Assembly (NCBI GenBank): GCA_021604765.1
Contig: BQJP01000013.1
Coordinates: forward strand, 1 to 63,651
DNA length: 63,651 bases
Source: Thermodesulfobacteriota bacterium
GTDB lineage: Bacteria > Desulfobacterota_D > UBA1144 > Nemesobacterales > UBA2774
Direction: 5' to 3'
In this document: positions 9,308 through 36,599 of the stretch, piece by piece
Numbering within the stretch: position 1 is the stretch's first letter
Layout of the letters: each line of letters opens with the position of its first letter
Translations under genes and position numbers: made by a program
The notes under the pieces: generated by a model
The model's database searches: none
Told to the model about the DNA's origin: nothing
What the model saw: the letters and a program-made list of their open reading frames with translations, nothing else

Positions 9308-9440
9308 TTAATGTATCCCCTTATCATTGGGAAAGCATTTTACCATTGATATGTCAATTTATGCAAGATCGAAATTGAATAATTGACGCTAAGCATTTAA
9401 GGATTTACAATTCCATTGCGTTTTTCGAATAGGAATTTTA

Positions 9441-18314: not shown

Positions 18315-18350
18315 TTCCGCTTTATCTTCGAATTTTTACGGTGTTAGAAA

Positions 18351-18374
18351 ATGGCGGGCGATGGGGGATTCGAA
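18351..18374 (-). repeat. short remnant of the tRNA-Arg 3' end
   Basis: This 24-base segment matches the 3' end of the intact tRNA-Arg gene (36522-36545) at 23 of 24 positions, covering the CCA, discriminator, acceptor strand and part of the T arm, then diverges. It reads as an old attachment-site scar left of the main island, with one lipoprotein gene between it and the longer copy at 19026. Confidence 0.75.
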
Positions 18375-18461
18375 ATCCTTGACTTTAATACTTTGATAGC
18401 ATGTTCCCACTTTGTTGATAATAATTGATATATTAAAAAAGACTCATAGGAGGGTTATAGT

Positions 18462-19025
18462 ATGCGGATTCAGGTGATTATTCAATCTGTATTTTTGGTA
18501 GTTTTATTTGCCGTTCAACTGGGATGCGATAGCGATGGAAATGCCCAGCAAGTTAATAGTGAATTGAATATATTGTTTTCAGGTACTTTCGTTCCTGCTC
18601 CGGCTAATACGGATACGATTGACGACGGCAGGCCTGCAAGTCTAAGGACTTACCAGGGACAGGGCGAGTTTGGAAATTCAAATATCACTATTCTTGATGA
18701 GTTCGCCCAGCCCATTCCCCCAGCCAATTGTCCATTGGACAATCTCGAATTCGACCTTGTTCAAGGTAGTTTTGTAATAAGGGTTAACAATGGAGACTTA
18801 TTGCTTGGCACGATTGAATCCGGCTTCAGCTGCTTCGATCCGGTAGCAAGACGTTCAGAAATATTTGAAGAGGGGATTATCACAGACGGCACGGGGCAGT
18901 TTGCTGGTGCTAGCGGAGTAGTGGAGATCAGTACGAACTCTATTTTCCAAAACACTACAGCTGTAGATGGATTTGCTTCTGGTGGTTCAACAGGAGAGTT
19001 TAATAGCACTATAGAGTTTCCATAA
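18462..19025 (+). CDS. putative lipoprotein, beta-rich
   Basis: A 187-residue protein with a signal sequence ending in a lipobox-like VQLGC (Cys at about residue 22). The mature part is beta-rich, with GTGQFAGASGVVEI near residue 146. That glycine-rich strand motif recalls allene-oxide-cyclase/dirigent-type barrels, but the assignment is weak. AGGAGGG gives a strong ribosome site. The gene is bracketed by two tRNA-Arg fragments (18351 and 19026), and its stop codon sits at the edge of the second, so it may be a leftover of an earlier integrated element rather than a core gene. Confidence 0.65.
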   Translation: MRIQVIIQSVFLVVLFAVQLGCDSDGNAQQVNSELNILFSGTFVPAPANTDTIDDGRPASLRTYQGQGEFGNSNITILDEFAQPIPPANCPLDNLEFDLVQGSFVIRVNNGDLLLGTIESGFSCFDPVARRSEIFEEGIITDGTGQFAGASGVVEISTNSIFQNTTAVDGFASGGSTGEFNSTIEFP

Positions 19026-19072
19026 ATGGCGGACGATGGGGGATTCGAACCCCCGACCCCAGGCTTCGGAGG
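19026..19072 (-). repeat. attL: partial tRNA-Arg copy
   Basis: A copy of the tRNA-Arg 3' portion from the CCA end to the anticodon loop. It differs from the intact gene at three positions and departs from it right after the CTTCGGAGG of the anticodon region. The 5' half of the tRNA is missing, so it should not be transcribed into a functional tRNA. Confidence 0.9.
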
Positions 19073-19365
19073 GCGTTTCCATAGCTTATTGATACCTATT
19101 GATTCTTATAGATTCTTGATACAAACTCCTTTGTTTATTGATTTTGATCAATATTTGGTCCAGAAATACATATAGAGTCATATTGATTCTTAATATGACT
19201 AAATGGACACCTATTTGGACACCTTAATTCAGGGTTTTCTGTAAAATACATTTTAACCCCTGGATCTTTTGCAGGTTGATAGTTCTCGGAGAAGTTTAGA
19301 TTTAGCGAATATATATAACTACTAGTCCTTGAAAGAAAGTTCCTTATCTCATACAATTATTATTA
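19073..19365. other. island left-end non-coding region with candidate integrase arm repeats
   Basis: No convincing gene. It holds two copies of TATTGATTCTTA (19097-19108 and 19181-19192) and a 20-bp element at 19204-19223 that recurs near the right end. The layout (core, then short direct repeats inside the element) is that of an integrase-binding arm. Confidence 0.55.
19204..19223 (+). repeat. 20-bp arm repeat, left copy
   Basis: TGGACACCTATTTGGACACC, itself two TGGACACC units 12 bases apart. It is identical, in the same orientation, to 36433-36452 inside the right end. Confidence 0.8.
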
Positions 19366-20205
19366 ATGACTAAATCAACATCAACAATTAAAGTTTTCTT
19401 AGTAAATGGTAAACCGCAAGGCTTACGTTTTGCTGAAATATCCAATTGGACAGGTAAAGCCATTGCATGTCCGAGGTCCGAACTTACAGAGTTGTTTAAA
19501 AGGGATGAAATTGATAATCAAGGCATTTATATATTATATGGAGTAGATCCTAAGACGGATGAAAATGCAATATATATTGGAGAAGCCGAAGAAGTAAAAA
19601 GAAGACTTAAGCAGCAAAGAGAAAAAGATTATTGGAATAACGTAATAATCTTTACTAGCAAAGATGATAATTTAACAAAAGCACATGTTAAATACTTAGA
19701 GTCAAATCTTATACTAAGAGCAAACAAATTGTCTAAAGCTAAAACTATGAATTCAACATTATCTTCAACAAAGTTGCCCGAATCGGATGAAGCAGATATG
19801 AACGTCTTTTTGGATAAGATGTATCAGCTACTTCCAATATTAGGACTTAATAGTTTTACTCAAGAATTAGATCAAGATGACAAGAATACTGATATGCTTT
19901 ATTACACTATTAAAGGATTAACTGCTCGGGGGAAACGTACTCCTAATGGTTTCATGGTCTTTGAAAATTCACAAACAGTTAAGAATCACAGACCATCAGC
20001 TACGTCGATAAAAAGGATAAGAGAAAGACTGATAAAAGATCAAATTTTAATACCTAACAACGGACATCTAATATTCACGAAAGATTATGAATTTAGTAGT
20101 CCTAGTTATGCAGGAGGAGTAGTATGCGGTGGTAATACAAATGGACTCAAGGACTGGAAAAACAAAAAAGGTATTCCTCTTGGTAAACTAGAACTTTCAT
20201 CATAG
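19366..20205 (+). CDS. GIY-YIG nuclease domain protein with C-terminal DUF4357
   Basis: A 279-residue protein. The N-terminal segment IKVFLVNGKPQGLRFAEISN is the usual lead-in, then a GIY-YIG domain with GIY at 53-55, YIG at 70-72, and a downstream Arg-rich helix (EEVKRRLKQQ). The C-terminal YAGGVVCGGNTNGLKDWKNKKG resembles DUF4357. GIY-YIG domains are single-strand-nicking nucleases; members of this two-domain family are widespread in accessory DNA and poorly studied, and may act in defence or as a homing-like or toxin function. It is the first gene inside the left end. Confidence 0.8.
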   Translation: MTKSTSTIKVFLVNGKPQGLRFAEISNWTGKAIACPRSELTELFKRDEIDNQGIYILYGVDPKTDENAIYIGEAEEVKRRLKQQREKDYWNNVIIFTSKDDNLTKAHVKYLESNLILRANKLSKAKTMNSTLSSTKLPESDEADMNVFLDKMYQLLPILGLNSFTQELDQDDKNTDMLYYTIKGLTARGKRTPNGFMVFENSQTVKNHRPSATSIKRIRERLIKDQILIPNNGHLIFTKDYEFSSPSYAGGVVCGGNTNGLKDWKNKKGIPLGKLELSS

Positions 20206-20708: not shown

Positions 20709-22193
20709 ATGAGCAAAGAAGTTGAAGATTATCGACCATCTCATAACAGTGTTTTGTTTGGTACTATACAGGAAGCGGAACAACACTATCTTGGTTATAT
20801 CTTAACACTAGGAGTAATTAAAAATGACTGCTTGAATAGTGCTGATGAAGATATCTTTTATACGGAGACACACAGGATAATTTTCAATGCTATTAAGGAA
20901 GTTCATCAAGAGGGATTGAATATTAATATAGCAGCTGTTGCTGAAAAACTCAGAATAGTTCAGAAACCAGACAAAGAACCCTGGGTATCGTATTTAACTT
21001 ATTTAGTTCACATAGCATATCCAGTCCCTAATCTCGCATTAAAAGAAATAAAAAGGAGTGCCAAATATAGAAAAATAGGTGAGGATGCATATAAAATTTA
21101 TCAGGCCTGTAAACAACAAAGAGATGATATCATTGATGAGAAGTTAAATAAGTTGAAAGAATATCAGCAAATCGATTCCGATGATTCAAATACTCTTAAA
21201 ACCATTTCAGCCAAAGACTTGATTAATATAGACAAACCGAAATCCCTTTGGTGGGAATTACTTTATCCAGGCTTAATATCCCAAGTTAACTCCGAACCTG
21301 GAGTTGGAAAAACTACACTCGCCTATAATATAGCTTGCCATGGAGCCTTGAATAATCCTTTTCTGGGAGTTCATTATTCTAAGAAGATCAAGACTCTGTA
21401 TATTGATTTAGAAACACCAACATGGTTATGTAAGCAAAAGATAGAATCAATATGCAATAATCGACCGGAAGATTTTCATTTATTGAACTCTATATCGTTA
21501 AAAAAAGATATTGAGAAACTGATTAATACATGTAAAAGGGGCAATTTTGACCTAGTTATTATAGATACTCAAAGTAGAGCATTAGATCTAGAAGATGAAA
21601 ATTCTAATAGTGAGTCGAATAGAGCGGCGGGACTATTACGGCGATTAACAAAAGAGACTAGTGTTGCAATTATGTTGATGCACCACACGAAGAAAGCAGA
21701 TTTTGGAAGAGAAGTCTATAGGGGAAGAGGCGCTTCAGCAATTTCAGGTGCTGTAGATATCGTAGCAAATCTGGAATCGGTTGATGCTTATACCCTTAAG
21801 CTGAATATAGCAAAGAATCGGGCGAGTCCTAATCAATCAATTTCAATGAAGAAGCTTGGTGATGACAAATTTGATTTTTTGGGTTCGGATTTGAATATAG
21901 AGATTAAGTTGATTCAAAAAGCGATAATAGAGCTAAGCGCGCAACAAGATTCTGTAAATCAGAAATCAATAATTAAACATTTAAGAGGCAGAATTGGAGA
22001 AAAGCGAATTATAGATATTCTAAAACAGGGTGTAGGTAAATTTTGGAACAAGATTCCAGGGAGAAAAAATGAAAGTTTATTTGTATCTATAGAGGGTCAA
22101 TATTCTGAATTTGAGCAGTCAGAATTTCAAAATGGCAAAACGGCAACTACTAATAAAATTGATTTTGCCGTTTTAAAAGATGAATTTAATTAA
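20709..22193 (+). CDS. replication ATPase: DnaB N-terminal-like domain plus RepA/AAA_25 domain
   Basis: A 494-residue protein. The N-terminal part (about 10-110) matches the DnaB-helicase N-terminal domain (EAEQHYLGYIL ... DIFYTETHRIIFNAIKEV). The middle holds a RecA-like hexameric ATPase of the RepA/AAA_25 type: Walker A EPGVGKTT (196-203), Walker B LVIIDTQSRAL, and the MLMHHTKK motif. The C-terminal tail is winged-helix-like. It is too short for a full DnaB and has no primase, so it is likely the replicative helicase or initiator of the island. Iteron-like repeats lie 54 bases downstream. Confidence 0.85.
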   Translation: MSKEVEDYRPSHNSVLFGTIQEAEQHYLGYILTLGVIKNDCLNSADEDIFYTETHRIIFNAIKEVHQEGLNINIAAVAEKLRIVQKPDKEPWVSYLTYLVHIAYPVPNLALKEIKRSAKYRKIGEDAYKIYQACKQQRDDIIDEKLNKLKEYQQIDSDDSNTLKTISAKDLINIDKPKSLWWELLYPGLISQVNSEPGVGKTTLAYNIACHGALNNPFLGVHYSKKIKTLYIDLETPTWLCKQKIESICNNRPEDFHLLNSISLKKDIEKLINTCKRGNFDLVIIDTQSRALDLEDENSNSESNRAAGLLRRLTKETSVAIMLMHHTKKADFGREVYRGRGASAISGAVDIVANLESVDAYTLKLNIAKNRASPNQSISMKKLGDDKFDFLGSDLNIEIKLIQKAIIELSAQQDSVNQKSIIKHLRGRIGEKRIIDILKQGVGKFWNKIPGRKNESLFVSIEGQYSEFEQSEFQNGKTATTNKIDFAVLKDEFN

Positions 22194-22301: not shown

Positions 22302-22733
22302 ATGGAAAGAATAAAACTTGTGAAGGAATCAATAGAAAATAAGTTGCCAAGAGTTAAGAACCGAATTTCAAAAAAAAGTATCATTGATGCCATTGTAGGG
22401 TCCGGAGGATCGGTAAGCTTAATTGCTCAAAGGTGTGGTGTGACCCGTCAAACTATTTACAGATGGTTTGAGAGGCATCCTGATTTATCGGAACATGTTG
22501 AAAGGGACAGAGAGTTGTGGGCAGAAATTGCATTAAATAATGTATTAAAATCAGTTAGTAATGGTAATCATAAGGCATGTACTCAAATTCTCGAAAAGTA
22601 TGGAAAACATTTAGGTTGGGGAAAATCTCCCGAAGAACCTGGGGGTATCAGCAAAGTCGAGATTACATATGTCACTACACCCGAAACTGAACCATATTCG
22701 GATGGAACAAAGAACTTACAATCGTCAAGATGA
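22302..22733 (+). CDS. terminase-small-subunit-like HTH protein
   Basis: A 143-residue protein whose central part is a homeodomain-like HTH (VSLIAQRCGVTRQTIYRWFE), followed by helices EIALNNVLKSVSNGNHKACTQI and KYGKHLGWG. This matches phage small-terminase-like (phBC6A51-type) DNA-binding proteins. There is no large terminase, portal or capsid gene nearby. In phage satellites a lone TerS homologue redirects helper-phage packaging; that role is inference here. AAGGAGAG precedes the ATG. Confidence 0.65.
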   Translation: MERIKLVKESIENKLPRVKNRISKKSIIDAIVGSGGSVSLIAQRCGVTRQTIYRWFERHPDLSEHVERDRELWAEIALNNVLKSVSNGNHKACTQILEKYGKHLGWGKSPEEPGGISKVEITYVTTPETEPYSDGTKNLQSSR

Positions 22734-22800: not shown

Positions 22801-23250
22801 TTATAATGCTAACACTATGGTCAAGCAGTTTTGCATTTCGTTTAATAATATTTCAATTTCTCTGTCACTAGATGGGAATGCTCCTGCTTCATGTACATAA
22901 TGATTTCGTTTGTTGACTATTTTATCTTGAAAATAATCTACTTGAGGTCGGGTTAAACTACCAGATAGGGAAGAATGATGATGAGGTCTGATCAAAGATC
23001 TTAAATATGATCCCAGACTATTCCCATTTACATTACAATTATGATACGTCACAAAATTCTTCAAACTTGTATCAAGCGCCCTGGTACTATGTAATAGTTG
23101 AAGTAATAGTTTCCTTTTATTGCTTCTTATTCTTCTGCACAAATAAACATCTTGGTATTCATTTATAATTGTAGGTTCTTGACCAGAGAAACAAGGAGTG
23201 CCAGCGATTAGTGATTGCATAGCTCTTATTCTTCGTCTATGACTAGCCAT
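22801..23250 (-). CDS. HEPN-like protein, candidate RNase (third gene of operon)
   Basis: A 149-residue protein rich in Arg and His at the N-terminus. The C-terminal half holds KRNHYVHEAGAF with R115-x4-H120, the R(x4-6)H catalytic motif of HEPN ribonucleases, followed by a long amphipathic helix (IEILLNEMQNCLTIVL). HEPN proteins commonly act as RNA-cleaving toxins in abortive-infection systems. Its start overlaps the end of the upstream gene by 8 bases, so the two are translationally coupled. No specific HEPN family is recognised. Confidence 0.55.
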   Translation of the reverse strand: MASHRRRIRAMQSLIAGTPCFSGQEPTIINEYQDVYLCRRIRSNKRKLLLQLLHSTRALDTSLKNFVTYHNCNVNGNSLGSYLRSLIRPHHHSSLSGSLTRPQVDYFQDKIVNKRNHYVHEAGAFPSSDREIEILLNEMQNCLTIVLAL

Positions 23251-25045: not shown

Positions 25046-27055
25046 TTATATTTCAGATATGCCACAATACTTTAAGAATTCATATGTTTCATCATAAAAG
25101 CTCGGTGGGCGTGTGTAATCTCTTTCATCACCCTTGGGAACAAAAATTACCATTCCCTGACGTGCTCTCGTTAATAGTACCCTATAAGCATTGGCTAGAT
25201 AAACACGTTTATATGGATCATTGATATTTTGCCACTTGGTTCCTTTAAAAGCGTGGAGGCTCCATTTATCTTTAACTCGCCTAAAATCGGCATCCCAACA
25301 AACAGCAGTCCAATCTAGTTCCAGTCCTTGTATATCAAATTCTGTAGCAACCTCTTCTAGATAATAAGATGATCTGACGTCTTTTCTTCCATTCAGAAAC
25401 CAGACTTCAGGCTCTATTGAACTTTTTATATGGATTCCTTCGGGTTTAAGTCTAATACCACCTGAAGATGCTAATAGTCCAAAGCGTTCAGTTCCTCGTG
25501 ATTTTTCTCTTAACCATTCCCTAGCTTTCTTAATGTCTCTAGTAAGTACTAAGTGATATTTCTCTAATGAGGGATAAACATTCTTTGCATTCATGGCATT
25601 TCCATCAATAACAGCACCCACAAATTTTGACAGGTTTTCTGCTCTGTAAGAACGTAGTGAAACAGCAAGATGTAAGGCCTCTTCTTTCGTGGCGTTTAGA
25701 CCAGAAAGTTTAGATACTAAATTCTGGCCCCAGCTATAGTTTCTATTGGATACCTCACATGAATGATAAATGTCCCAATGCCTAAATCTCTTATTCAGTG
25801 CATCAAACCATTCGCTAAGGCCAGCTTCACCTGTGTTTATTTCCTGCCCGCCACCTATAAGACAAATAATTGTACACCAATCTTGCTTGCGATCCATGAG
25901 ACTAATTAAAAATTCAGGCTCGGATATATCAAATTCAGTTGCACCTCTCTTTTGCACCATAAATTTCTTAGCATGAGACCTATTCCATGCTCGTTGTGCC
26001 TCATCGAACACAACTATATTTTCTACTGGGGCTGCTTCAGATTTAAGACCTTCATCCCTAAAGTGATGAATGTTTTGTATGAAGGCAGCCACTTTTTGGA
26101 GAGCTTCATTTTTATAAATCTTTTCTCCTCGAGCTTTGGTAAGCGCAACTTCATCTCTTGCTAATGCTTCTTTTAGTACTTTAACAAGTGGACCATTACC
26201 AGAAAGAAATACTGCGTGTTCCTCTGTATCTTCTGTCCTGCGGGTTGATATATTAAGACCGGCAAGTGTTTTACCTGCACCGGGAACGCCAGTGACAAAG
26301 CAGATAGATTTTCTACGATGTTGTTTGGAATGGGCTATAATATGATAGATACAATCTGTTGTAAGGGTAAGATTCTCAGCACCAGCATCAGATCGAGAGA
26401 TTTCCTCAACTGAGTGCCCTTGATATAGTGCTTGAGCAGCTTCTACTATGGTAGGAGTAGGTTTGTAGCCACTTTCAGCCCATGAGTATCCTTCAAAGTT
26501 TCCAATCCGATTTTCCTGTGGCATATCAGAAAGAGCCCGAAAAATTAAATCAGAAAGATTCGTACCATTAGAAAGCAAAGGTTTTGAAACTTTGTCTTCA
26601 TACCAATAAAGTCTATTTGATATAAAAGTCGCATTTGTACAAACTAGGATTGGAACAATATATTTATTGTGGCTGCCTAAATGGAAGTTTTTTAGATCGA
26701 GAGCATAATCTACAACTTGATCAATTCCATCCCGATGATAAATTCTTGCACCAGTCTTATATTCTATAACAAAGACAATACCCTCGATTAATAGTACAAC
26801 ATCAACACGTTTACCCATTCTGGGGATTGAGAACTCAAAGAAAATTTCACCTGCCCGAACATTTTTTAACTGTTCTTTTAGATTTCTTATCTGCTCTTTC
26901 CACGCATTTATTTGTGTATCTTCCAGTGATGAAAAATGATGACTGTCTGCGAGCTTCCCAAGAGTTTGATCTTGGTGTGTTTCTAAAAATGCAGGAATAC
27001 TATTGTTGTAATAAGATTGATTAATCACTTTGAAACATCCTACAAGGATTTTCAT
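25046..27055 (-). CDS. DUF2075 (Schlafen-group-3-like) helicase with N-terminal PD-(D/E)XK nuclease
   Basis: A 669-residue protein. The N-terminal part has a nuclease signature: D85 in GKRVDVVLLI and E98-Y-K100 in FVIEYKTG, a PD-(D/E)XK core similar to NERD-type domains. It is followed by a superfamily I-like ATPase: Walker A VTGVPGAGKT (about residues 253-262), Walker B VVFDEAQRAW, and a C-terminal LLTRARQGMVIFVP motif. These are features of DUF2075/COG3410 proteins, which are frequent in defence islands and resemble the helicase part of group 3 Schlafens. The combination suggests a DNA- or RNA-degrading defence effector; its partner, if any, is unclear. Confidence 0.8.
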   Translation of the reverse strand: MKILVGCFKVINQSYYNNSIPAFLETHQDQTLGKLADSHHFSSLEDTQINAWKEQIRNLKEQLKNVRAGEIFFEFSIPRMGKRVDVVLLIEGIVFVIEYKTGARIYHRDGIDQVVDYALDLKNFHLGSHNKYIVPILVCTNATFISNRLYWYEDKVSKPLLSNGTNLSDLIFRALSDMPQENRIGNFEGYSWAESGYKPTPTIVEAAQALYQGHSVEEISRSDAGAENLTLTTDCIYHIIAHSKQHRRKSICFVTGVPGAGKTLAGLNISTRRTEDTEEHAVFLSGNGPLVKVLKEALARDEVALTKARGEKIYKNEALQKVAAFIQNIHHFRDEGLKSEAAPVENIVVFDEAQRAWNRSHAKKFMVQKRGATEFDISEPEFLISLMDRKQDWCTIICLIGGGQEINTGEAGLSEWFDALNKRFRHWDIYHSCEVSNRNYSWGQNLVSKLSGLNATKEEALHLAVSLRSYRAENLSKFVGAVIDGNAMNAKNVYPSLEKYHLVLTRDIKKAREWLREKSRGTERFGLLASSGGIRLKPEGIHIKSSIEPEVWFLNGRKDVRSSYYLEEVATEFDIQGLELDWTAVCWDADFRRVKDKWSLHAFKGTKWQNINDPYKRVYLANAYRVLLTRARQGMVIFVPKGDERDYTRPPSFYDETYEFLKYCGISEI

Positions 27056-27681: not shown

Positions 27682-27697
27682 TATATAATATTGTCAA
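27675..27697. promoter_or_regulatory. imperfect dyad at the STAND gene / partner gene junction
   Basis: TTGACA ... TGTCAA arms surround a TATATAAT centre (18 of 23 positions symmetric). The inner 15 bases, ATTATATAATATTGT (27680-27694), recur exactly at 32260-32274 in front of the large gene. It is a candidate operator for autoregulation. Confidence 0.45.
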
Positions 27698-30600
27698 GTG
27701 AAAATAGATTGTGGGATTCGGTCTCCAAATAAAGTTTTTTTGCGTTTGCCTCCCCACTTTTTAACTCGTTTTTTTATTCCATCATTTATTGTAGTTCCAA
27801 ATAGTTTGATTGGTTTACCCTTGAATTTGTGCTCTTTAGACCAGATACCAAAACGACCATCAACAATCTTTAGAAAAAGAACTGAATTCGTCCAGAATTT
27901 CCGATTCGACTCGGTCTTGCACATAGTTATAAACCATTTTTGTGCCCATATATTTCGCTCATAAGCGTATAATGCTGATTTACATGCTAGTCCTATGAAG
28001 CCTACTGTGTCTTTGAATTCATTGAGTATTTTGCTAGCATGCTTATTCTCTAGGGAAAATCCGCAGACCATTATAGCACGTGTAATCATCGAAGGTGTGC
28101 CGGTTCCAATTCTTTCATCAACATACTGTTGTAGCAACTTGTATTTAGAATTTTTCATAGCGGATAGCACTTCGATAGATAGTGCGTGGTCATCTAATGC
28201 TTTATCCAGCCGCTCAAACCGGATCTCGTTGACATGAGGCTCATCAGGACCTGACCATATAGACATTGAATCTAAAGGTATTGATTCAAAACCGTAAGTA
28301 AAACGAATTAAAGGTTGACATTGGCTGAGGCGATTATATAGAATCCTAGCATTTTTAGGTTTATTAGTTACCAATTGTCTTGCTAATAGTAATCCTATAT
28401 TGTGAATAATACGTAATTTATGTATTGGTAATTTTATTATTAAACTGTACCAGTATTCACCTAATGTATTGTTCTTAGATATAATTTTATCAAATTGCTC
28501 AATTGTTAAATTTTCGAGGATGTTTTGTGCATTTATAGTTGTCAGTTTTTCCACAAAAATCTCAAACGCAGCTACATTGCGTTCTTGACGTTCGCTAAAT
28601 GTTTTACTATTTTCACAAAGCTTGTTGTATAAATCATAAGGATTATTAGATGTTGAATTTGTATCCGAAACAACATATAGAGAGGGGTTTGCAGTATTGT
28701 CAGGTTTGTTTTGCTCAATATTTGGAATTGGTATGTCTAGTTCTAGATCGATGACTTTTTTTATTGCAACATCTATTCTGGATGAAATCTCGATAAGTGT
28801 TTTTCCTTCTAATCTTTTTGCAGCCTTACCAAGAAATCTATGAGATATACGTGTAATGGCATCATCCTGTGATATAAAACCACGTTCAGCAGCTCTAAGT
28901 ATTGCTTCGGAACCAAACCAAATTTCGTTATACGATTCTTTAGAATTTAATTGTTTAGGATTCCAATCTGTATAGGCAAATTCTTCAATCAATTTATCAT
29001 CGTCTAGCTTCACAATCAGTGCTATAGCTTTTTGTCGAACTAATCTATTTTGAGATTTAAATAACAATGGAATATAATTGCAAGATTTTTTAGAAATAGC
29101 TGTATTAGTATTGTTTGCGAAGCTAAGTATGCAAATTAACATATGGTCATTATTATTCTTAATCGCTTTTTCTAGATATCTCTCAAATATGATTTTTTTG
29201 AGTGGTTTAAGTACTTTCAAGAGATCTAGTAAAATGTTATCGGTTCGATTGTTTGCGAGTAAGATCTGGAGTTGTTCGGGTCCGGTAAGATGCGGGAAAG
29301 CTATTAACATTGCATACTGCAAAATTGTTAATTTATATTGCATATCAACTTCTTCCACATTACTATCAATACGTTGAGTATGTTTGAGCAATTTCATGGC
29401 TTTAGTCTTGTTGAGTAGTGCGCTACTGTTGCGAAGATCGAGAATGCCTTGCAAAAGTTGGAAACCATTTCGCTTGATTACATCATCTCCAAATTCAATA
29501 TGTTTAGCGATTACAGTGTTAGGGGCGAATCTGGCAAGTCCAGTACATCCCATTTCGAACTGCAGGTCCACCTCATTGGTAGACCGGTCTGTTCGGAGCA
29601 ACGATACGTCTATATTTCGATAATATTTGGCGGTATTTGCAATATTTTTAGGCTTAATTGAATTAGGGTCACAAGGGTCAGTTGCGCAGTAGTCTTCTAT
29701 CAATCGCCATCCATCACTTTTAGCACGATGAGCGACTAACTCTTCCGCAATCCGTTCAGCTTTTTCTCCATCTTGTATTTCACCAGTTGCACTTAATAGA
29801 TATACCAAAGTCCATTTTCCAGTATTAGATATGTCATTATTCTCAAGAACTTTAATAGTATTATGGATCTCTATGTACGTATCCTTCCAGTCAATGCAAT
29901 TTAGCCTAACAAGGTTTATAAATTGTTCATAAGGATATCTAGTGTATGGGTTTATAGCATGAGCAAAACACCAATTAAGAAAACTAGTAGTAAATCCTGA
30001 AAGAGGTTTATCTTTCATCAAAGTTAATGCAAGGCAATATAGAGTATATAAGTTAAAATTGTCTACTACATTGATTGAGTTAAGTATATTTCTTTCTACT
30101 GGGGAGAGTTCATCTAGGCTTTTGTCTAGATTTGTTTGTTGCTTAATGGTTCTTTCTTGCTCTTCTTGTTCTGAACGAAAAGTATTTCTTGAATCTTCTA
30201 TTAAGAATGTAATCTGATTTAGCCAATTTCTGATGTGTTCTGAAATTATAGTCCAAGCTTTGTTATCAGTTTTAGCATCTAATAACGCATGTGTAAGCCA
30301 ATCTAAATTTGATGGATATGTATCTTTAAGACACAAAGAATAAGCAGCTAGCATAAATGCTTCGGGCTTCTTCTTCGCAAACTTTACAAAAGATTTATAG
30401 TCATCAAAGTTGGGATTTTGTAGTTCAACAAAATGGCAGATCAGTGTCTCAGTAAATTCAGTTGGGCAAGTCTCATCTAGAATTGCGATTGTAATTGCCG
30501 CAATCACTACATCAGCAGTTTTATCTATAGCAGCAACGGGTTCAATTATAGACCGTAGTGAATCTTCAGGATCATTTTGATTTCTATAGGATTTGCGAAG

Positions 30601-32253
30601 TGAATCAATAATAGAAAAACCCAGAGCCAAAGTTAATCCCTCTTCCTTTATAAAGTAGAGTGTTGGATCCCCCTCCACTGGTTGGAAAAAGCTGCCCTCA
30701 GCTACTAACTGCAGGTTACCCTCAAATATTGTTAAATCCTCATTCTTGTTAGAAAGTAGTCTCTCTAGTATCTTATCTGCGTGTTTTTGTAAATTCTTTG
30801 AAAATTCATGACTGTTTTGCAGTACAGGTGAATCTCTTTCACTTGCTCTAATATGTTCAAATAGAATTCGACTGACATTTAGCTGATCAAAACTTTCAAT
30901 TTGCTCTGTGCTGAGAAGTTCGAGCGCAATACCCAAAAGGCGAGGATTTTTGATAGCAAATAGTACAGAAGCTGCTAGATTGTTACGTTTTATGCCATGA
31001 AAATTAAGTATAGAATCTAATTCTATCTCATTCCATTCAGGTACAAATATGTGAGTTTTTGGAGTAGATAGTCTGCGCTCTATATATTCTTGGTAATAGT
31101 TAGTACGACAGGTAATAATGAGCTTTCCAGAAAGCTTGTCGAGTTCTGCCCCAAGAGATTCGATTACTAGTGCCCAGTCAATTTTAGGTTTTTGGTTCAA
31201 ACCATCTACAAAAACTATAAGGTTTTGTGTTTTGAATTTATTTTTCCGCCAAAATTCTAAACGACGGCGCCATCTGCTGATATTAGTGTCAGTGGAATGA
31301 TCGCTTGTTTGGACTATTAGTTTGTTAATTATTATTGTCTCAATATTCTCTCTCACATTGGATGTATATAGGTCTTCCGGTGTTAGAATTATCATAAGTG
31401 GTTTTTTATCAAGACTTAGCCAACTTTGAGCAACTAACCAAGATTTCCCGACACCTTCGTTACCATGCACAACAGCTATATTGCCCTTGGGTTCTATAGA
31501 GAAAAATGGGCTAAGATTTTCAATTAACTCTGCTCTCTCAACGGTGATACTTTGTGGGTAATCTTGTGGTGATAGGTGTTGTCCCAAAAACTGTCTTGCC
31601 ATAGTTCTATTTGAAAAGACCGATTGTAGCCAATCATGATTAGCTTTTTGCAATAAACCTGCTCCAATCGTTGGTTGATGAATTTGGGTTCTTAATAGTT
31701 TGATATGATTCTTAAAAGCATCATCACGACTTATTGCCTCAAGTGCTTTTTGTGCAGATTTAACAATAGAAGCGTCTTGTATGTTTAGTTCTAAGAATTG
31801 AGTTGTCTCATCTTTTGTTTCGGCTAGAGCAACTCCTAATGGAGGTAGTCTAACTTCTGACCAATCTAGAATAAATGTTGTGACACCAAGCCTCGCACTA
31901 GTATCTCGAATGGTATCTGCGAGTTGTGTTGATACACTTGTAGTTGTTCCTAGAATCCAAAGATCAACATTGCGATTGAACTCTATTGACAGCTCAGCAA
32001 TTTTTGTGAGAACTCTGTCTTTAGGTATTGATCCTGAATAATGTTTTGCCTCGAAACTTACTACATCGCTATCATAAACTGGTTTAGCATCTACTCCATG
32101 CTGAGAACCGCTCGCAGCTATGCGAAAAGGTATTCCTGATATTTTCGTTAAGACTACCGCGATCAACCCCTCAAACCCCTTTTCTCCAGTGTCGTCGAGT
32201 TTTAGCAGAGCAGTTTTAAGTTGTTCTAAATGATTAGTAATATTTTTGTCCAT
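27694..32253 (-). CDS. large STAND-type NTPase with N-terminal PD-(D/E)XK nuclease (Avs-like)
   Basis: From the ATG at 32253 the product has 1519 residues. A nuclease domain comes first: GFEGLIAVVLT, HGVDAKP with the active Asp, then VVSFEAKHY with E-A-K, a restriction-endonuclease-like (Mrr/Cap4-like) core. A P-loop NTPase follows: VHGNEGVGKSWL and Walker B LIVFVDG. The remaining thousand residues are helical repeats of the HEAT/TPR kind. Effector, STAND ATPase and long sensor is the layout of Avs antiviral proteins, which recognise phage terminase or portal. A GTG at 32340 would add 29 residues but has no ribosome site. TATAAT (32260-32265, minus) sits 6 bases before the ATG. Confidence 0.75.
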   Translation of the reverse strand: MDKNITNHLEQLKTALLKLDDTGEKGFEGLIAVVLTKISGIPFRIAASGSQHGVDAKPVYDSDVVSFEAKHYSGSIPKDRVLTKIAELSIEFNRNVDLWILGTTTSVSTQLADTIRDTSARLGVTTFILDWSEVRLPPLGVALAETKDETTQFLELNIQDASIVKSAQKALEAISRDDAFKNHIKLLRTQIHQPTIGAGLLQKANHDWLQSVFSNRTMARQFLGQHLSPQDYPQSITVERAELIENLSPFFSIEPKGNIAVVHGNEGVGKSWLVAQSWLSLDKKPLMIILTPEDLYTSNVRENIETIIINKLIVQTSDHSTDTNISRWRRRLEFWRKNKFKTQNLIVFVDGLNQKPKIDWALVIESLGAELDKLSGKLIITCRTNYYQEYIERRLSTPKTHIFVPEWNEIELDSILNFHGIKRNNLAASVLFAIKNPRLLGIALELLSTEQIESFDQLNVSRILFEHIRASERDSPVLQNSHEFSKNLQKHADKILERLLSNKNEDLTIFEGNLQLVAEGSFFQPVEGDPTLYFIKEEGLTLALGFSIIDSLRKSYRNQNDPEDSLRSIIEPVAAIDKTADVVIAAITIAILDETCPTEFTETLICHFVELQNPNFDDYKSFVKFAKKKPEAFMLAAYSLCLKDTYPSNLDWLTHALLDAKTDNKAWTIISEHIRNWLNQITFLIEDSRNTFRSEQEEQERTIKQQTNLDKSLDELSPVERNILNSINVVDNFNLYTLYCLALTLMKDKPLSGFTTSFLNWCFAHAINPYTRYPYEQFINLVRLNCIDWKDTYIEIHNTIKVLENNDISNTGKWTLVYLLSATGEIQDGEKAERIAEELVAHRAKSDGWRLIEDYCATDPCDPNSIKPKNIANTAKYYRNIDVSLLRTDRSTNEVDLQFEMGCTGLARFAPNTVIAKHIEFGDDVIKRNGFQLLQGILDLRNSSALLNKTKAMKLLKHTQRIDSNVEEVDMQYKLTILQYAMLIAFPHLTGPEQLQILLANNRTDNILLDLLKVLKPLKKIIFERYLEKAIKNNNDHMLICILSFANNTNTAISKKSCNYIPLLFKSQNRLVRQKAIALIVKLDDDKLIEEFAYTDWNPKQLNSKESYNEIWFGSEAILRAAERGFISQDDAITRISHRFLGKAAKRLEGKTLIEISSRIDVAIKKVIDLELDIPIPNIEQNKPDNTANPSLYVVSDTNSTSNNPYDLYNKLCENSKTFSERQERNVAAFEIFVEKLTTINAQNILENLTIEQFDKIISKNNTLGEYWYSLIIKLPIHKLRIIHNIGLLLARQLVTNKPKNARILYNRLSQCQPLIRFTYGFESIPLDSMSIWSGPDEPHVNEIRFERLDKALDDHALSIEVLSAMKNSKYKLLQQYVDERIGTGTPSMITRAIMVCGFSLENKHASKILNEFKDTVGFIGLACKSALYAYERNIWAQKWFITMCKTESNRKFWTNSVLFLKIVDGRFGIWSKEHKFKGKPIKLFGTTINDGIKKRVKKWGGKRKKTLFGDRIPQSIFT

Positions 32254-32259
32254 GACACA

Positions 32260-32274
32260 ATTATATAATATTGT
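32260..32274. promoter_or_regulatory. 15-bp element at the start of the large STAND gene
   Basis: ATTATATAATATTGT on the plus strand, identical to 27680-27694. It contains the minus-strand TATAAT used as a candidate -10 and lies within an ACAAT...ATTGT dyad. Confidence 0.45.
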
Positions 32275-32378
32275 TAGGAATTCATCGAGTAATAGATAAC
32301 CAGTGCTAGTCGTTAAATTTGATTTAATAAAGTAGACCACTCATTTGATATGTTGAATATATTGGTATATCATATCTA

Positions 32379-32681
32379 ATGATGTTAGACAAGATAATCG
32401 ATCAATTAGAAAGTCTGGATCAGACCGAGTTGAGAATTCTTTATAACCACATTGGTTCTGCGTTACCCCCTTCCGTAGTTTATCAGCATAAACCGTCTAA
32501 GTGTGGTTGCAAGAAGTGCAAAGAAGGTGGTCCAGGTCATGGTAAATATTGGTATGCATATTTTAGCTATGACGGAAAGACTCATTGTGTGTATATAGGA
32601 AAAGAAAAAAGAGAAATAGATCCAATTTATGAACTAGAACTAAGAGAGTATCAATGGAGGAAAAAAGATGGGGTGCTATAA
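32379..32681 (+). CDS. DUF6788-like small protein paired with integrase
   Basis: A 100-residue protein with the motif CGCKKCKEGGPGHGKYWYAY, in which closely spaced cysteines (C-x-C-x2-C) precede GGPGHGxYWY; this is the signature of DUF6788-type proteins often encoded next to recombinases. Its end overlaps the integrase start by 14 bases. Function is unknown; a DNA-binding or recombination-accessory role is plausible. TTGATA (32345-32350) and TATCAT (32368-32373), 17 bases apart, place a start point at the ATG, again suggesting leaderless initiation. It is divergent from the large STAND gene. Confidence 0.65.
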   Translation: MMLDKIIDQLESLDQTELRILYNHIGSALPPSVVYQHKPSKCGCKKCKEGGPGHGKYWYAYFSYDGKTHCVYIGKEKREIDPIYELELREYQWRKKDGVL

Positions 32682-33732
32682 AAAGGGAAACAGATGGTAT
32701 ATAGACTATTATGATAATGGATCTAGGAAGAGGGAAGTCGTCACAATAAAAGGCAAAGACCCATCAACAATTACTTACCGTGATGCAGAGAATGCTTTAG
32801 CAATTAGAAAAGCTGAAATAGCACAAGGCAAGTTTGACATTTCCAAAACTGAGAAACCTATAAAATTCGAAAAACTCATAGACGCTTATATAGATTGGGC
32901 AAATGAAAACCATAAGTCTCCCGATAGAGACCACACAATTCGTAATAATTTATTAGATTTTTATAAAGGAAAGAATATATATTCTCTTACACTTTGGGAT
33001 ATTGAAAAATACAAGTCTGACAGAAAGAAACGAGGTCGAAAACCGGAAACTATTAATAAGGAACTCGGAGCACTAAGAAGAATGTTCAATCTGGCTCTTC
33101 AAGGGGCTTTGAAAATAAAAATAGGTAAGAATCCTATAAAAGGTATTAAGCTTCTAAAAGTACCTAAAATAAAGCCTAAAACTTATAGACCTAAGGAATT
33201 TCAGAAACTATATGATTGTGCTCCAAAACATTTCAAGCCCATATTACTATGTGCATACATGACAGGAATGAGGCGTTCAGAAATAGCAACATTAAAATGG
33301 CCTGATGTAGATTTTCAAGCTAGAACAATCTATATAGCTGAAACAAAGAATGATGAACCAAGACTAATGCCACTTTCCGAAGCTCTTTATAGTGTTCTGC
33401 AAGATTTAAAAAACAATTCAGAAAGTGAGTTTGTTTTTACAACTCATGAGGGTAAACCATATACCTCAAGATCTTCCTGGAAAAGTACCTGGGCTACAAC
33501 CTTGAAAAAGTCGGAGATTGAAAAAGGTAGATTTCATGATTTAAGGCATACATTTGTGTCTAATCTTATTGTGAATGAGAAAGAAGACTTTGCAACAGTG
33601 ATGGCTTTAAGTGGACATAAAGATATATCTATGCTTAAACGTTATAGTCATACACATGATGAAGCCAAAAGAAATGCTATAAGTAAGCTAAATCAAACTA
33701 TTATTGTCGATAATCAGCCAACAAGTCAATAA
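32668..33732 (+). CDS. tyrosine recombinase (site-specific integrase)
   Basis: A 354-residue integrase. The N-terminal segment is an arm-type-binding lead (RWYIDYYDNGSRKREVV), followed by a SAM-like core-binding domain (about 70-150). The catalytic domain has Arg in AYMTGMRRSEIATLKWPDVD, Lys in TKNDEPR, HxxR in FHDLRHTF, His in LSGHKDI, and the nucleophile Tyr in LKRYSHT. All expected catalytic residues are visible, so it is probably active. It should mediate integration into tRNA-Arg. It sits 2.8 kb from attR because a DUF4062 gene lies between. Confidence 0.93.
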   Translation: MGCYKKGNRWYIDYYDNGSRKREVVTIKGKDPSTITYRDAENALAIRKAEIAQGKFDISKTEKPIKFEKLIDAYIDWANENHKSPDRDHTIRNNLLDFYKGKNIYSLTLWDIEKYKSDRKKRGRKPETINKELGALRRMFNLALQGALKIKIGKNPIKGIKLLKVPKIKPKTYRPKEFQKLYDCAPKHFKPILLCAYMTGMRRSEIATLKWPDVDFQARTIYIAETKNDEPRLMPLSEALYSVLQDLKNNSESEFVFTTHEGKPYTSRSSWKSTWATTLKKSEIEKGRFHDLRHTFVSNLIVNEKEDFATVMALSGHKDISMLKRYSHTHDEAKRNAISKLNQTIIVDNQPTSQ

Positions 33733-33898: not shown

Positions 33899-36394
33899 AT
33901 GGTTCATAAAGTATATAGAGTATTTTTAGCATCTCCATCAGATGTAAATCAAGAAAGAGAAATAGCGAAAATTGTTGTGGCTGATATCAATAAATCGATA
34001 GGAAGAAAATTTAACATTACGCTTGATCTTGTAGGCTGGGAGGACATACCATCAGGTTATGGTAGACCTCAAGGAAAAATAAACCCTCACCTGGAAAAAA
34101 GCAATTTATTCATAGGGCTATTATGGAGAACCCTTGGGTCCCCAAGCGGTAAAGAAACATTAACAGGATTTGAAGAAGAATTTCAACTAGCATGTGAGCG
34201 TAAAGAAAAAAAGAAGATAGATGACGTCAAATTATTTTTCAGAGATATAGATGAAGAATTTCTCAAGGATCCTGGAGAGCATCTTCAAAGTTTATTAGAT
34301 TTCAAAGAAGATATAGAAACCAATAAAAAGATTTACTACGAAAAATTTGTTGATGATCATGAATGGGAATCTAAACTGCGGACGAACCTAACGCAGTATT
34401 TGTTACAAAAGATTGAAGTAGGAGAAACCCAACCAACTTCTTCCCCTGTACAAGCCACAACTTCAGAAACACCAGATGGTCTTAATGAAACAAAATCCCA
34501 TGAAGATGAAGAACAAGTAGTAGAATCACTAAACAAAACCCTTAAGTTTCTTTTAGGTGGTGATGAATTAGACAATTACACCACAGTTAGGTTATTTCTA
34601 TATTCATCAGGCTTATTCTATGGGAACAACTTGACATCAGAAGTCTTAAAAACACATGAAATACAGCAAATTTATACATTTAGAAAAGACATTAAACTTA
34701 TAGGTCAAGAAAAGATCCTAATACTCAGGACCATAATCGAAGATAAAAATAATGTAACTGCTGGTTGGTTTTTTTTAAAACCAGTTAATCAAGAAAAACT
34801 CGAAACTCTATTTTTTATGTTAAGTATAAATAATTTTTCAGAAAACTTGAGACTACAGGCTCTTGACTATATATTGAAACTGTCCAACTTTTCTCAACTC
34901 GATAAAATAGTTGAAAGCTTTGAAGGATCATCTAAGAATAAGCAAATAGCAATTCTACAAATATTGTCTAAACATGGCAATATTGATAGCATACCTATAT
35001 TAGATTTTATTATAAAATCTAGCCACTCACCTAAAATTATAAAATCTGCTTGGAAATCTAAGCTTAAATTACTCTTGAATGATAATGAAAATAGCGCAAT
35101 TCAACTAATATTAGATACGAATTTAGATATTAGAGCAGAATTAAATGAATTTTTAGAAGATTTACTGAAACTTCGTGATAAAAGTCTATTAAAAGGTTTG
35201 AGCGATGACGTTGATTCAAATTTACGTCTAGAAATAATTAATTTGATACCAGAACTTTATACCCTAGAAGAGCTAAATAAAATATTAAAATATTCATTAG
35301 AAAATGAATCTTTATTGTCATCTGGGAGTTTAAACAATTATTATAAAATTAGAGCTACTGCACTTTTGGAATTAGTAAAAAGGGGAGAAGTTGCTGATTT
35401 AGATTTTATTCATGAAAAACTATTGAATAAAGAATCCTCAGAGACAACAAAGACTGGGATTTTACCAGATTATAGTAAAATTCAGAAAGATGAGTACATA
35501 GATTCAGTTCTTTTGGAATTATACAAAAGACAATCATATAATGAATTGAATCAAGAAATTGATTGGTACAATTCAGAGGAACAGTTGAAATATCAATCCT
35601 TAATAGAAAAGCATTATGACAATTTTAAGGAGACATTATATGAAGATATTCTAAATGATTTTATACGTATCAAGGAAGATGAATTAAGGAGGCGGATTCA
35701 AGTAAGAGATAATTTCATTAATAGCTACTCTGATAAAGATGTTGAAATTAAAGCAGAATTTAAGAAACAATTGGATGAATTGGATAGATTCGATGAATAT
35801 ATAAAGACTGCATATTTAAAAATTGCTTTATTGGGCCTCTCTAATATAAAACGTACTTTGCCAATAGACTTAGCTAGGAAAGTATTACATAAAAATATGG
35901 GATTTTTTAGAAATCAAATTATGTTCAACTTATTAGACAGTTTTTTTGAGAATGGAACAACTGATGATATAAAAAATATTAGAAATTTGATAGATGGTGA
36001 TAAGTTATCTGATAATATAGAAATTAAAGCATGTAAGGTTCTAATTAAACTTGATAAAGAGAATAAAGAAAAAACCCTTGAATTTCTTTTAGATACAAAT
36101 AATCCAGTATTATTAAAAACACTATTCTCAATCATGCCAATTACTCCTAAGGACTCAGTTCTAGATAAAATAAAGTTACTCTTATACAATGAGAGGGATA
36201 CCGTGAGAGAGGTTACTCTTTCTTATCTATTTCAGATTATGGATGATGACGAGTTAGCGGAATTATTAGAAAACTATTCAACAAAAAACAATACATATTA
36301 CTACAATGTAGTTTGTTGGCTAGATCGCTACTTATTTGCTCCAGCTGAATTGAAGGAGCATTTCAGAGAAGAACTTAAAGCAAAATTAGCCTAA
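33899..36394 (+). CDS. DUF4062 (TIR-like) protein with C-terminal helical repeats
   Basis: An 831-residue protein. The first 165 residues form DUF4062: VYRVFLASPSDVNQEREIA, then GYGRPQGKINPHLEKSNLFI, and a TGFEEEFQLA helix with a conserved Glu. This is a TIR-like fold found at the N-terminus of defence and signalling NTPases. Here the NTPase is missing; after a Thr/Ser-rich linker (about 175-205) the remaining 600 residues are HEAT-like alpha repeats. It lies between the integrase and attR, a common cargo slot. A TATAAT at 33827-33832 and the repeated CAGATAACT (33749 and 33855) lie upstream. A defence role is inference. Confidence 0.7.
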   Translation: MVHKVYRVFLASPSDVNQEREIAKIVVADINKSIGRKFNITLDLVGWEDIPSGYGRPQGKINPHLEKSNLFIGLLWRTLGSPSGKETLTGFEEEFQLACERKEKKKIDDVKLFFRDIDEEFLKDPGEHLQSLLDFKEDIETNKKIYYEKFVDDHEWESKLRTNLTQYLLQKIEVGETQPTSSPVQATTSETPDGLNETKSHEDEEQVVESLNKTLKFLLGGDELDNYTTVRLFLYSSGLFYGNNLTSEVLKTHEIQQIYTFRKDIKLIGQEKILILRTIIEDKNNVTAGWFFLKPVNQEKLETLFFMLSINNFSENLRLQALDYILKLSNFSQLDKIVESFEGSSKNKQIAILQILSKHGNIDSIPILDFIIKSSHSPKIIKSAWKSKLKLLLNDNENSAIQLILDTNLDIRAELNEFLEDLLKLRDKSLLKGLSDDVDSNLRLEIINLIPELYTLEELNKILKYSLENESLLSSGSLNNYYKIRATALLELVKRGEVADLDFIHEKLLNKESSETTKTGILPDYSKIQKDEYIDSVLLELYKRQSYNELNQEIDWYNSEEQLKYQSLIEKHYDNFKETLYEDILNDFIRIKEDELRRRIQVRDNFINSYSDKDVEIKAEFKKQLDELDRFDEYIKTAYLKIALLGLSNIKRTLPIDLARKVLHKNMGFFRNQIMFNLLDSFFENGTTDDIKNIRNLIDGDKLSDNIEIKACKVLIKLDKENKEKTLEFLLDTNNPVLLKTLFSIMPITPKDSVLDKIKLLLYNERDTVREVTLSYLFQIMDDDELAELLENYSTKNNTYYYNVVCWLDRYLFAPAELKEHFREELKAKLA

Positions 36395-36432: not shown

Positions 36433-36452
36433 TGGACACCTATTTGGACACC
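36433..36452 (+). repeat. 20-bp arm repeat, right copy
   Basis: Identical to 19204-19223 and in the same orientation, 69 bases inside attR. Likely an integrase arm-binding site. Confidence 0.8.
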
Positions 36453-36521: not shown

Positions 36522-36568
36522 ATGGCGGGCGATGGGGGATTTGAACCCCCGACCTCAGGCTTCGGAGG
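36522..36568 (-). repeat. attR core within intact tRNA-Arg
   Basis: The right copy of the 47-bp core, running from one base beyond the CCA end to the anticodon region. The recombined gene keeps a full tRNA sequence, so integration does not destroy it. Confidence 0.9.
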
Positions 36569-36599
36569 CCTGCGCTCTAATCCACTGAGCTAATCGCCC
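36523..36599 (-). tRNA. tRNA-Arg (anticodon CCG)
   Basis: A 77-nt tRNA. Acceptor GGGCGAT/ATCGCCC, D arm GCTCAGT..GAGC, anticodon stem CAGGC/GCCTG around CTCCGAA (anticodon CCG), T arm GGGGG-TTCAAAT-CCCCC and encoded GCCA. It reads CGG. It serves as the island attachment site. Confidence 0.96.

What the first reader, a model, noticed from the sequence alone, without database searches (positions are those of the whole stretch)
33899..36394. DUF4062 TIR-like domain joined to HEAT repeats without an NTPase
DUF4062 usually precedes STAND NTPases. Here it is followed directly by a 600-residue repeat sensor-like region, in the integrase-adjacent cargo slot. It could be a one-protein sensor-effector.
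Basis: partly seen in the sequence, partly recalled or inferred. Interest (0 to 1): 0.6.

Follow-up and report, generated by a model that had tools for sequence, protein, structure and literature searches.

The report
TIR-like enzyme fused to HEAT-repeat sensor
A bacterial mobile element carries a single protein that joins a TIR-like NAD+-cutting domain to a long HEAT-repeat arm, and relatives in several bacterial phyla, often on mobile DNA, suggest an uncharacterised one-gene anti-phage suicide system that in some relatives sits beside a Thoeris-type effector gene.

Summary
ORF 33899-36394 (831 aa) is an intact DUF4062 (TIR-like) domain (res 1-175) followed by a ~600-residue helical HEAT-like region, with no Walker A motif. 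It lies between a tyrosine integrase and the right attachment site of a ~17.5-kb element in tRNA-Arg (attL 19026-19072, attR 36522-36568). Two same-genus genomes have that tRNA site without this element. I found 12 other intact full-length relatives plus five broken copies and one cut by a contig end, across several bacterial phyla; the catalytic Glu (E94; KpSwz E97, TEP1 E1008) is present in all 13 intact proteins. Three relatives also lie in repeat-bounded insertions. A May 2026 preprint (PMC13174449) shows that DUF4062 is a TIR-like NADase (Swarozyc, portal-activated), so the enzymology is known; I found no mention of a HEAT architecture in it. Best reading: a one-protein sensor-effector that depletes NAD+ on infection, built like DSR2 but with a DUF4062 blade. 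New side finding: seven DUF4062 loci, two of them HEAT-type, sit directly beside a Thoeris ThsA_Macro gene, suggesting that some DUF4062 proteins make a signal. The window's genome has no ThsA_Macro. Function is inferred; nothing was assayed.

The parts
33899..36394 (+). DUF4062-HEAT gene, 831 aa
   Evidence: open frame; 12 other intact full-length relatives
33899..34423 (+). TIR-like DUF4062 domain, residues 1-175, (beta-alpha)5 topology
   Evidence: PDC-S60 N-terminal profile E 8e-29; profile link to TEP1 and KpSwz; AF2 model pLDDT 86, pTM 0.82
34178..34180 (+). codon of predicted catalytic Glu E94 (TGFEEEF motif, start of alphaC)
   Evidence: invariant in alignments A1, A3, A5; present in all 13 intact members; aligns with the KpSwz E97 and TEP1 E1008 positions
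34424..34543 (+). disordered variable linker, residues 176-215
   Evidence: pLDDT below 50 over residues 176-204; mean pairwise identity 13%
34544..36178 (+). HEAT-like helical repeat region, residues 216-760
   Evidence: HEAT_2 in 8 of 11 members; AF2 helices; Foldseek top PDB hits nearly all HEAT/ARM solenoids
36179..36391 (+). more conserved C-terminal cap (YYYNVVCWLD motif), residues 761-831
   Evidence: mean pairwise identity 30% over 761-815 versus 19% in the repeats
32668..33732 (+). tyrosine integrase
   Evidence: PF00589 E 4e-33; PHROG integrase E 1e-70
32379..32681 (+). small DUF6788-like gene overlapping the integrase start
   Evidence: PF20586 E 4e-4, below cut-off
36523..36599 (-). 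tRNA-Arg (ccg), integration target
36522..36568 (.). attR (3' part of tRNA-Arg)
   Evidence: 47-nt direct repeat, 94% identical to attL; same-genus G006 and G007 have the tRNA site without this element
19026..19072 (.). attL
36433..36452 (.). perfect 20-nt repeat TGGACACCTATTTGGACACC just inside the right end (probable integrase arm site)
   Evidence: the role is inferred
19204..19223 (.). same 20-nt repeat just inside the left end

Best explanation
It is a single-gene anti-phage (or anti-mobile-element) abortive-infection protein carried as cargo of a tRNA-Arg integrative element. The C-terminal HEAT solenoid, with its conserved cap, is the sensor and keeps the enzyme off. Binding an invader component (most likely a phage structural protein) lets the N-terminal DUF4062 domains assemble into active TIR-like NADases that cleave NAD+ with E94 and stop cell growth before the phage matures. 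Shown here: architecture, active-site residue, cross-phylum family, mobile context. From literature: DUF4062 is an NADase that works by abortive infection (PMC13174449). Inferred: that this protein is active, that HEAT is the sensor, and what it senses.
For: E94 aligns with the mutated E97A position of the KpSwz structure and with TEP1 E1008 and is present in all 13 intact members. The TIR part is conserved (mean 42% identity) while the repeat region diverges (19%), the pattern expected of a constant effector and a fast-evolving sensor. The 600-residue region travels with this DUF4062 branch: a profile of the C-terminal part found four further copies not used to build it, each with a DUF4062 piece in front, and all HEAT members fall in one 100/98 clade of the domain tree. 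Mobile context: window element with attL/attR and two same-genus genomes without it; Marinobacter L020 4.0-kb stretch between two tRNA-Leu 3' copies, Planctomonas L027 11.1-kb stretch between tRNA-Pro copies with an integrase just upstream, L083 insertion between 270-nt duplications; IMG/VR contig L014 near an integrase. The window element also carries the defence candidates PDC-S14 (E 3e-98) and PDC-S41 (E 1e-284). The closest functional design is DSR2 (NADase plus HEAT repeats binding a phage tail tube protein, PMC11263360).
Against: No activity or defence was measured. The full-length model is moderate (pTM 0.59; 11 sequences) and Foldseek gives no hit below 1e-3 for either the full protein or the TIR domain; for the TIR domain it mixes TIR with other Rossmann-like folds. 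Two family members sit beside ThsA_Macro, which suggests signalling rather than bulk NAD+ loss in those cases. Several members have no visible mobile or defence neighbours in the region read (L081, L082).
Confidence: 0.6

Rival explanations
1. The DUF4062 domain is a signal maker, not an executioner: on sensing infection it converts NAD+ to ADP-ribose or a derivative that opens a separate effector, as ThsB does for the TM-macro ThsA of Thoeris.
For: ThsA_Macro (PF20016) lies directly beside the DUF4062-HEAT gene in Nodosilinea (L025) and Actinomadura (L026) and beside non-HEAT DUF4062 genes in Calothrix, Nostoc and three further cyanobacterial loci. In L040 and L085 it is flanked by two DUF4062 genes, and in Priestia L041 a 49% identical ThsA is flanked by TIR genes instead. 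TM-macro ThsA binds ADPR (PMC11204291), which DUF4062 produces (PMC13174449).
Against: The window's own genome (95% complete) and nine other family genomes or records have no ThsA_Macro. No other conserved partner gene was recognised beside the stand-alone copies whose flanks were read.
Confidence: 0.22
2. It serves the mobile element rather than the host, for example as a guard against competing elements or as an addiction module, using the same NADase.
For: Located at the integrase end of the element with similar integrase-adjacent placement in L014 and L027; the tRNA-Arg site shows extra partial att copies, as at an integration hot spot.
Against: Hard to separate from host defence; several relatives lie among housekeeping genes with no integrase seen (L081, L082).
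Confidence: 0.12
3. It is not an NADase in cells: a nucleoside-processing or binding DUF4062 domain used as a scaffold.
For: DUF4062 also resembles nucleoside 2-deoxyribosyltransferases (PMC13174449); three of four human DUF4062 proteins purified there showed no NADase activity; Foldseek on the TIR model is not specific for TIR.
Against: The catalytic Glu and its surrounding motif are kept across phyla.
Confidence: 0.06

Closest known systems
Swarozyc (KpSwz, DUF4062 anti-phage system, PMC13174449)
   Same: N-terminal TIR-like DUF4062 NADase domain, same catalytic Glu, followed by a C-terminal auxiliary region
   Different: Swarozyc's auxiliary domain is a small HTH/winged fold that binds phage portal (the PDB chain is 326 residues in all); here it is a ~600-residue HEAT-like solenoid with its own conserved cap
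DSR2 (SIR2-HEAT, PMC11263360)
   Same: single-protein N-terminal NADase plus long HEAT-repeat region with a C-terminal domain; in DSR2 that region binds a phage tail tube protein
   Different: DSR2's blade is SIR2, not TIR/DUF4062; no sequence match to DSR2 was seen in the PDB searches
Thoeris with TM-macro ThsA (PMC11204291)
   Same: two HEAT-type family members, and five non-HEAT DUF4062 loci, sit beside ThsA_Macro where ThsB TIR genes usually are
   Different: ThsB is a canonical TIR protein; the window copy has no ThsA
SARM1 (from own knowledge)
   Same: TIR NADase controlled by an armadillo/HEAT-like solenoid in one chain
   Different: opposite domain order, has SAM domains, metabolite-sensing, animal protein
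PADLOC PDC-S60 candidate
   Same: first ~180 residues match strongly
   Different: remaining ~720 profile positions do not match; PDC-S60 is only a candidate

Membership tests
DUF4062 TIR-like NADase domain | sequence profile match | tested here: met
   PDC-S60 N-terminus E 8e-29; below Pfam's own cut-off for the window copy, but other members reach E 1e-9
DUF4062 TIR-like NADase domain | catalytic Glu in alphaC | tested here: met
   E94
DUF4062 TIR-like NADase domain | NAD+ hydrolysis | not testable with these tools
   needs biochemistry
Swarozyc | HTH/winged portal-binding auxiliary domain | tested here: not met
   C-terminal region is HEAT-like. The KpSwz auxiliary domain itself was not compared with it directly
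Swarozyc | anti-phage defence by NAD+ depletion | not testable with these tools
   needs phage challenge and NAD+ assay
DSR2 | SIR2 NADase domain | tested here: not met
   no SIR2 in Pfam scan
DSR2 | long HEAT-repeat region in the same chain | tested here: met
Thoeris (TM-macro) | ThsA_Macro partner | tested here: not met
   none in G000; present beside L025 and L026
STAND / Avs NTPase receptors | P-loop NTPase module | tested here: not met
   no Pfam NTPase in 11 members and no Walker A in 13
PDC-S60 (PADLOC) | full-length profile match | tested here: not met
   182 of 906 positions in the window copy; likewise only the first ~165-183 positions in each relative tested
tRNA-targeted integrative element cargo | att repeats, integrase, relatives with the site lacking the element | tested here: met

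The most novel reading that the evidence does not exclude
DUF4062 proteins, HEAT-type ones among them, form a Thoeris-like class in which DUF4062 replaces ThsB: the HEAT arm senses infection, DUF4062 makes an ADP-ribose-type signal, and a ThsA_Macro (or another, unrecognised) effector kills the cell; stand-alone copies such as the window's either evolved to act alone or signal to an effector encoded elsewhere.
Probability: 0.25. Interest if true: 0.75.

Novelty: new variant of a known kind. Interest (0 to 1): 0.55.

Why it matters
It would add a HEAT-type sensor architecture to the newly described DUF4062 NADase defences, a design parallel to DSR2 and SARM1 in which a helical solenoid controls an NADase. 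The recurrent DUF4062-ThsA_Macro pairs make a specific question testable: does DUF4062 only destroy NAD+, or can it also signal like ThsB? Gammaproteobacterial members could be tested in E. coli directly.

Tried and rejected
An archaeal host (first guess from deoxyhypusine synthase) was rejected: leuS_bact, TypA and MnmG models fit, so the host is bacterial; its phylum is not named by the tools. STAND/Avs membership rejected (no NTPase). Filing it as Swarozyc rejected (auxiliary domain differs). Full-length PDC-S60 membership rejected. Searches with the window sequence alone found no full-length relative (phages); relatives appeared only with a three-sequence profile. Foldseek of the TIR domain and of the full model was not decisive. 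The integrase family search over whole genomes gave too many hits to use; local profiles were used instead. The profile of only the HEAT-branch TIR domains lost KpSwz; the broader set recovered it.

Full report
OBSERVATION. The frame 33899-36394 (+) is open for 831 codons and occurs once in the source genome. Residues 1-175 are a DUF4062 domain: Pfam is weak for this copy (E 0.016), PADLOC's PDC-S60 profile is strong over residues 3-181 (E 8e-29). The remaining ~600 residues have no Pfam hit in this copy, but the family does: HEAT_2 in 8 of 11 members, HEAT in 6, and designed HEAT proteins (alphaRep) head the PDB profile matches. AlphaFold2 with 11 sequences gives a (beta-alpha)5 domain, a disordered linker (176-204) and helical hairpins to the end (pLDDT 77.5, pTM 0.59); nearly all top PDB folds are HEAT/ARM solenoids, though with low TM-scores. 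There is no Walker A motif in 13 intact members.

ACTIVE SITE. DUF4062 was reported in May 2026 as a TIR-like NADase; the K. pneumoniae protein (Swarozyc, KpSwz) needs E97 and human TEP1 needs E1008 (PMC13174449). A profile of 24 DUF4062 domains made here reaches TEP1 (11gz, E 6e-4) and KpSwz (10wc, E 0.004). In the alignment to the KpSwz chain, the position matching E94 of the window protein is an Ala within SFTEKAF; the paper's KpSwz structures were made with the E97A mutant, so this Ala is taken to be residue 97 (inference from numbering). In TEP1 the same position is the second Glu of SVTEMEV. E94 is one of five invariant columns over 24 domains. The domain model is confident (pLDDT 86, pTM 0.82), with E94 in the third helix, where TIR catalytic glutamates sit (own knowledge).

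FAMILY. A scan of 84,980 prokaryotic genomes and of IMG/VR with a three-sequence profile, plus three phylum surveys, gave 12 further intact full-length proteins of 793-833 aa: IMG/VR contig L014, Methylococcales L015, Clostridia L016, Brocadia L018, Microbulbifer L019, Marinobacter L020, Cellulomonas L023, Nodosilinea L025, Actinomadura L026, Planctomonas L027, and L081 and L082 from two further genomes of the Pseudomonadota survey (lengths and motif). Five more copies are broken: Asticcacaulis L005 (IS5), Nitrospinae L022 (transposase) and three with frame breaks (L028, L031, L083); one is cut by a contig end (G963). Mean identity is 42% in the TIR part, 13% in the linker, 19% in the repeats, 30% in the C-terminal cap. 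All HEAT members sit in one supported clade of the domain tree, shared with some TPR-type and other proteins; the seed profile was drawn from this branch, so the search favours it. Prevalence is low: 1 of 386 cyanobacterial genomes, 1 of 396 actinobacterial, about 5 of 398 Pseudomonadota counting the query genome and broken copies.

MOBILE CONTEXT. A 47-nt repeat of the tRNA-Arg 3' end flanks 17.5 kb (attL 19026-19072, attR 36522-36568), with a perfect 20-nt repeat just inside each end and G+C mostly 0.27-0.38 inside against about 0.39 outside. Same-genus genomes G006 and G007 have the tRNA-Arg with TypA and UDG on its two sides and about 1.0 and 1.7 kb between those genes, against 18.8 kb here. 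The same theme recurs with other tRNAs: Marinobacter, 57-nt tRNA-Leu repeat around a 4.0-kb stretch; Planctomonas, 68-nt tRNA-Pro repeat around 11.1 kb with an integrase immediately upstream of the gene; L083, 270-nt duplication around 4.0 kb. The IMG/VR copy lies near an integrase.

DEFENCE CONTEXT AND THE THOERIS LINK. In Nodosilinea and Actinomadura the next gene, convergent, is a Thoeris ThsA_Macro effector (E 4e-56 and 5e-55). Of 14 genomes and records checked, only four have ThsA_Macro, once each, always beside DUF4062; 14 control genomes have none. Non-HEAT DUF4062 genes in Calothrix, Nostoc and three further cyanobacterial loci (L040, L085, L087) also adjoin ThsA_Macro, twice with DUF4062 genes on both sides, while a related ThsA in Priestia is flanked by ordinary TIR genes. 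So DUF4062 appears to stand in for ThsB there. The window genome lacks ThsA_Macro, so the stand-alone reading is preferred for it. Microbulbifer L019 has a ThsB-TIR and a caspase-like gene upstream.

MECHANISM. Shown: architecture, active-site conservation, cross-phylum distribution, mobile context. Literature: DUF4062 as NADase, abortive infection, assembly on the phage portal (PMC13174449); HEAT region binding phage protein in DSR2 (PMC11263360); TM-macro ThsA binding ADPR (PMC11204291). Inferred: HEAT as sensor, NAD+ depletion by this protein, nature of the trigger.

NOVELTY. DUF4062 enzymology and defence are published. Nine open papers mention DUF4062; of these I read only the Swarozyc paper, and of it the first two of six parts, the figure legends and a term search for HEAT, archaea, auxiliary, integrase, prophage and STAND. 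That search found no HEAT architecture (the one 'heat' hit is a heatmap). The ThsA pairing was not searched for there, and its supplement was not available. I therefore call it a new variant of a known kind, with the caveat that the supplement may list the HEAT class or the pairing.

Noticed in passing
L025:12435-13292, L026:12369-13229, L006:6471-7328, L009:6475-7332, L040, L085, L087: ThsA_Macro genes directly beside DUF4062 genes in seven loci, twice flanked by two DUF4062 genes: a candidate Thoeris-like class with DUF4062 in place of ThsB.
   Followed up: partly
window 19366-20205 and 25046-27055: The same element carries two PADLOC candidate defence genes: PDC-S14 (DUF4357, with a weak GIY-YIG hit) and PDC-S41 (Schlafen-type helicase).
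   Followed up: no
window 27694-32340 (-): 1548-aa protein with only weak AAA hits and no NCBIfam or significant PADLOC assignment, in the middle of the element.
   Followed up: no
window 22801-23250 (-): Weak ApeA-like HEPN hit (E 0.004).
   Followed up: no
window 22302-22733: HTH protein weakly resembling phage terminase small subunits; with the DnaB-like gene 20709-22193 it hints at a phage-satellite-like ancestry of the element.
   Followed up: no
window 18349-19026: A third partial att copy suggests an older neighbouring insertion at the same tRNA-Arg; G006 (L066) also holds an extra partial att copy.
   Followed up: partly
L019:7697-9074: ThsB-TIR plus caspase-like peptidase upstream of the Microbulbifer DUF4062-HEAT gene, resembling a TIR-caspase Thoeris variant.
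   Followed up: no
L005, L022, L028, L031, L083: Five of 19 family loci are broken by insertion sequences or frame breaks, hinting at a cost of carrying the gene or at assembly errors.
   Followed up: partly
L083:5326-5595 and 9320-9589: 270-nt, 98% duplication of a gene's 5' part flanks the insertion holding a broken DUF4062-HEAT gene.
   Followed up: no
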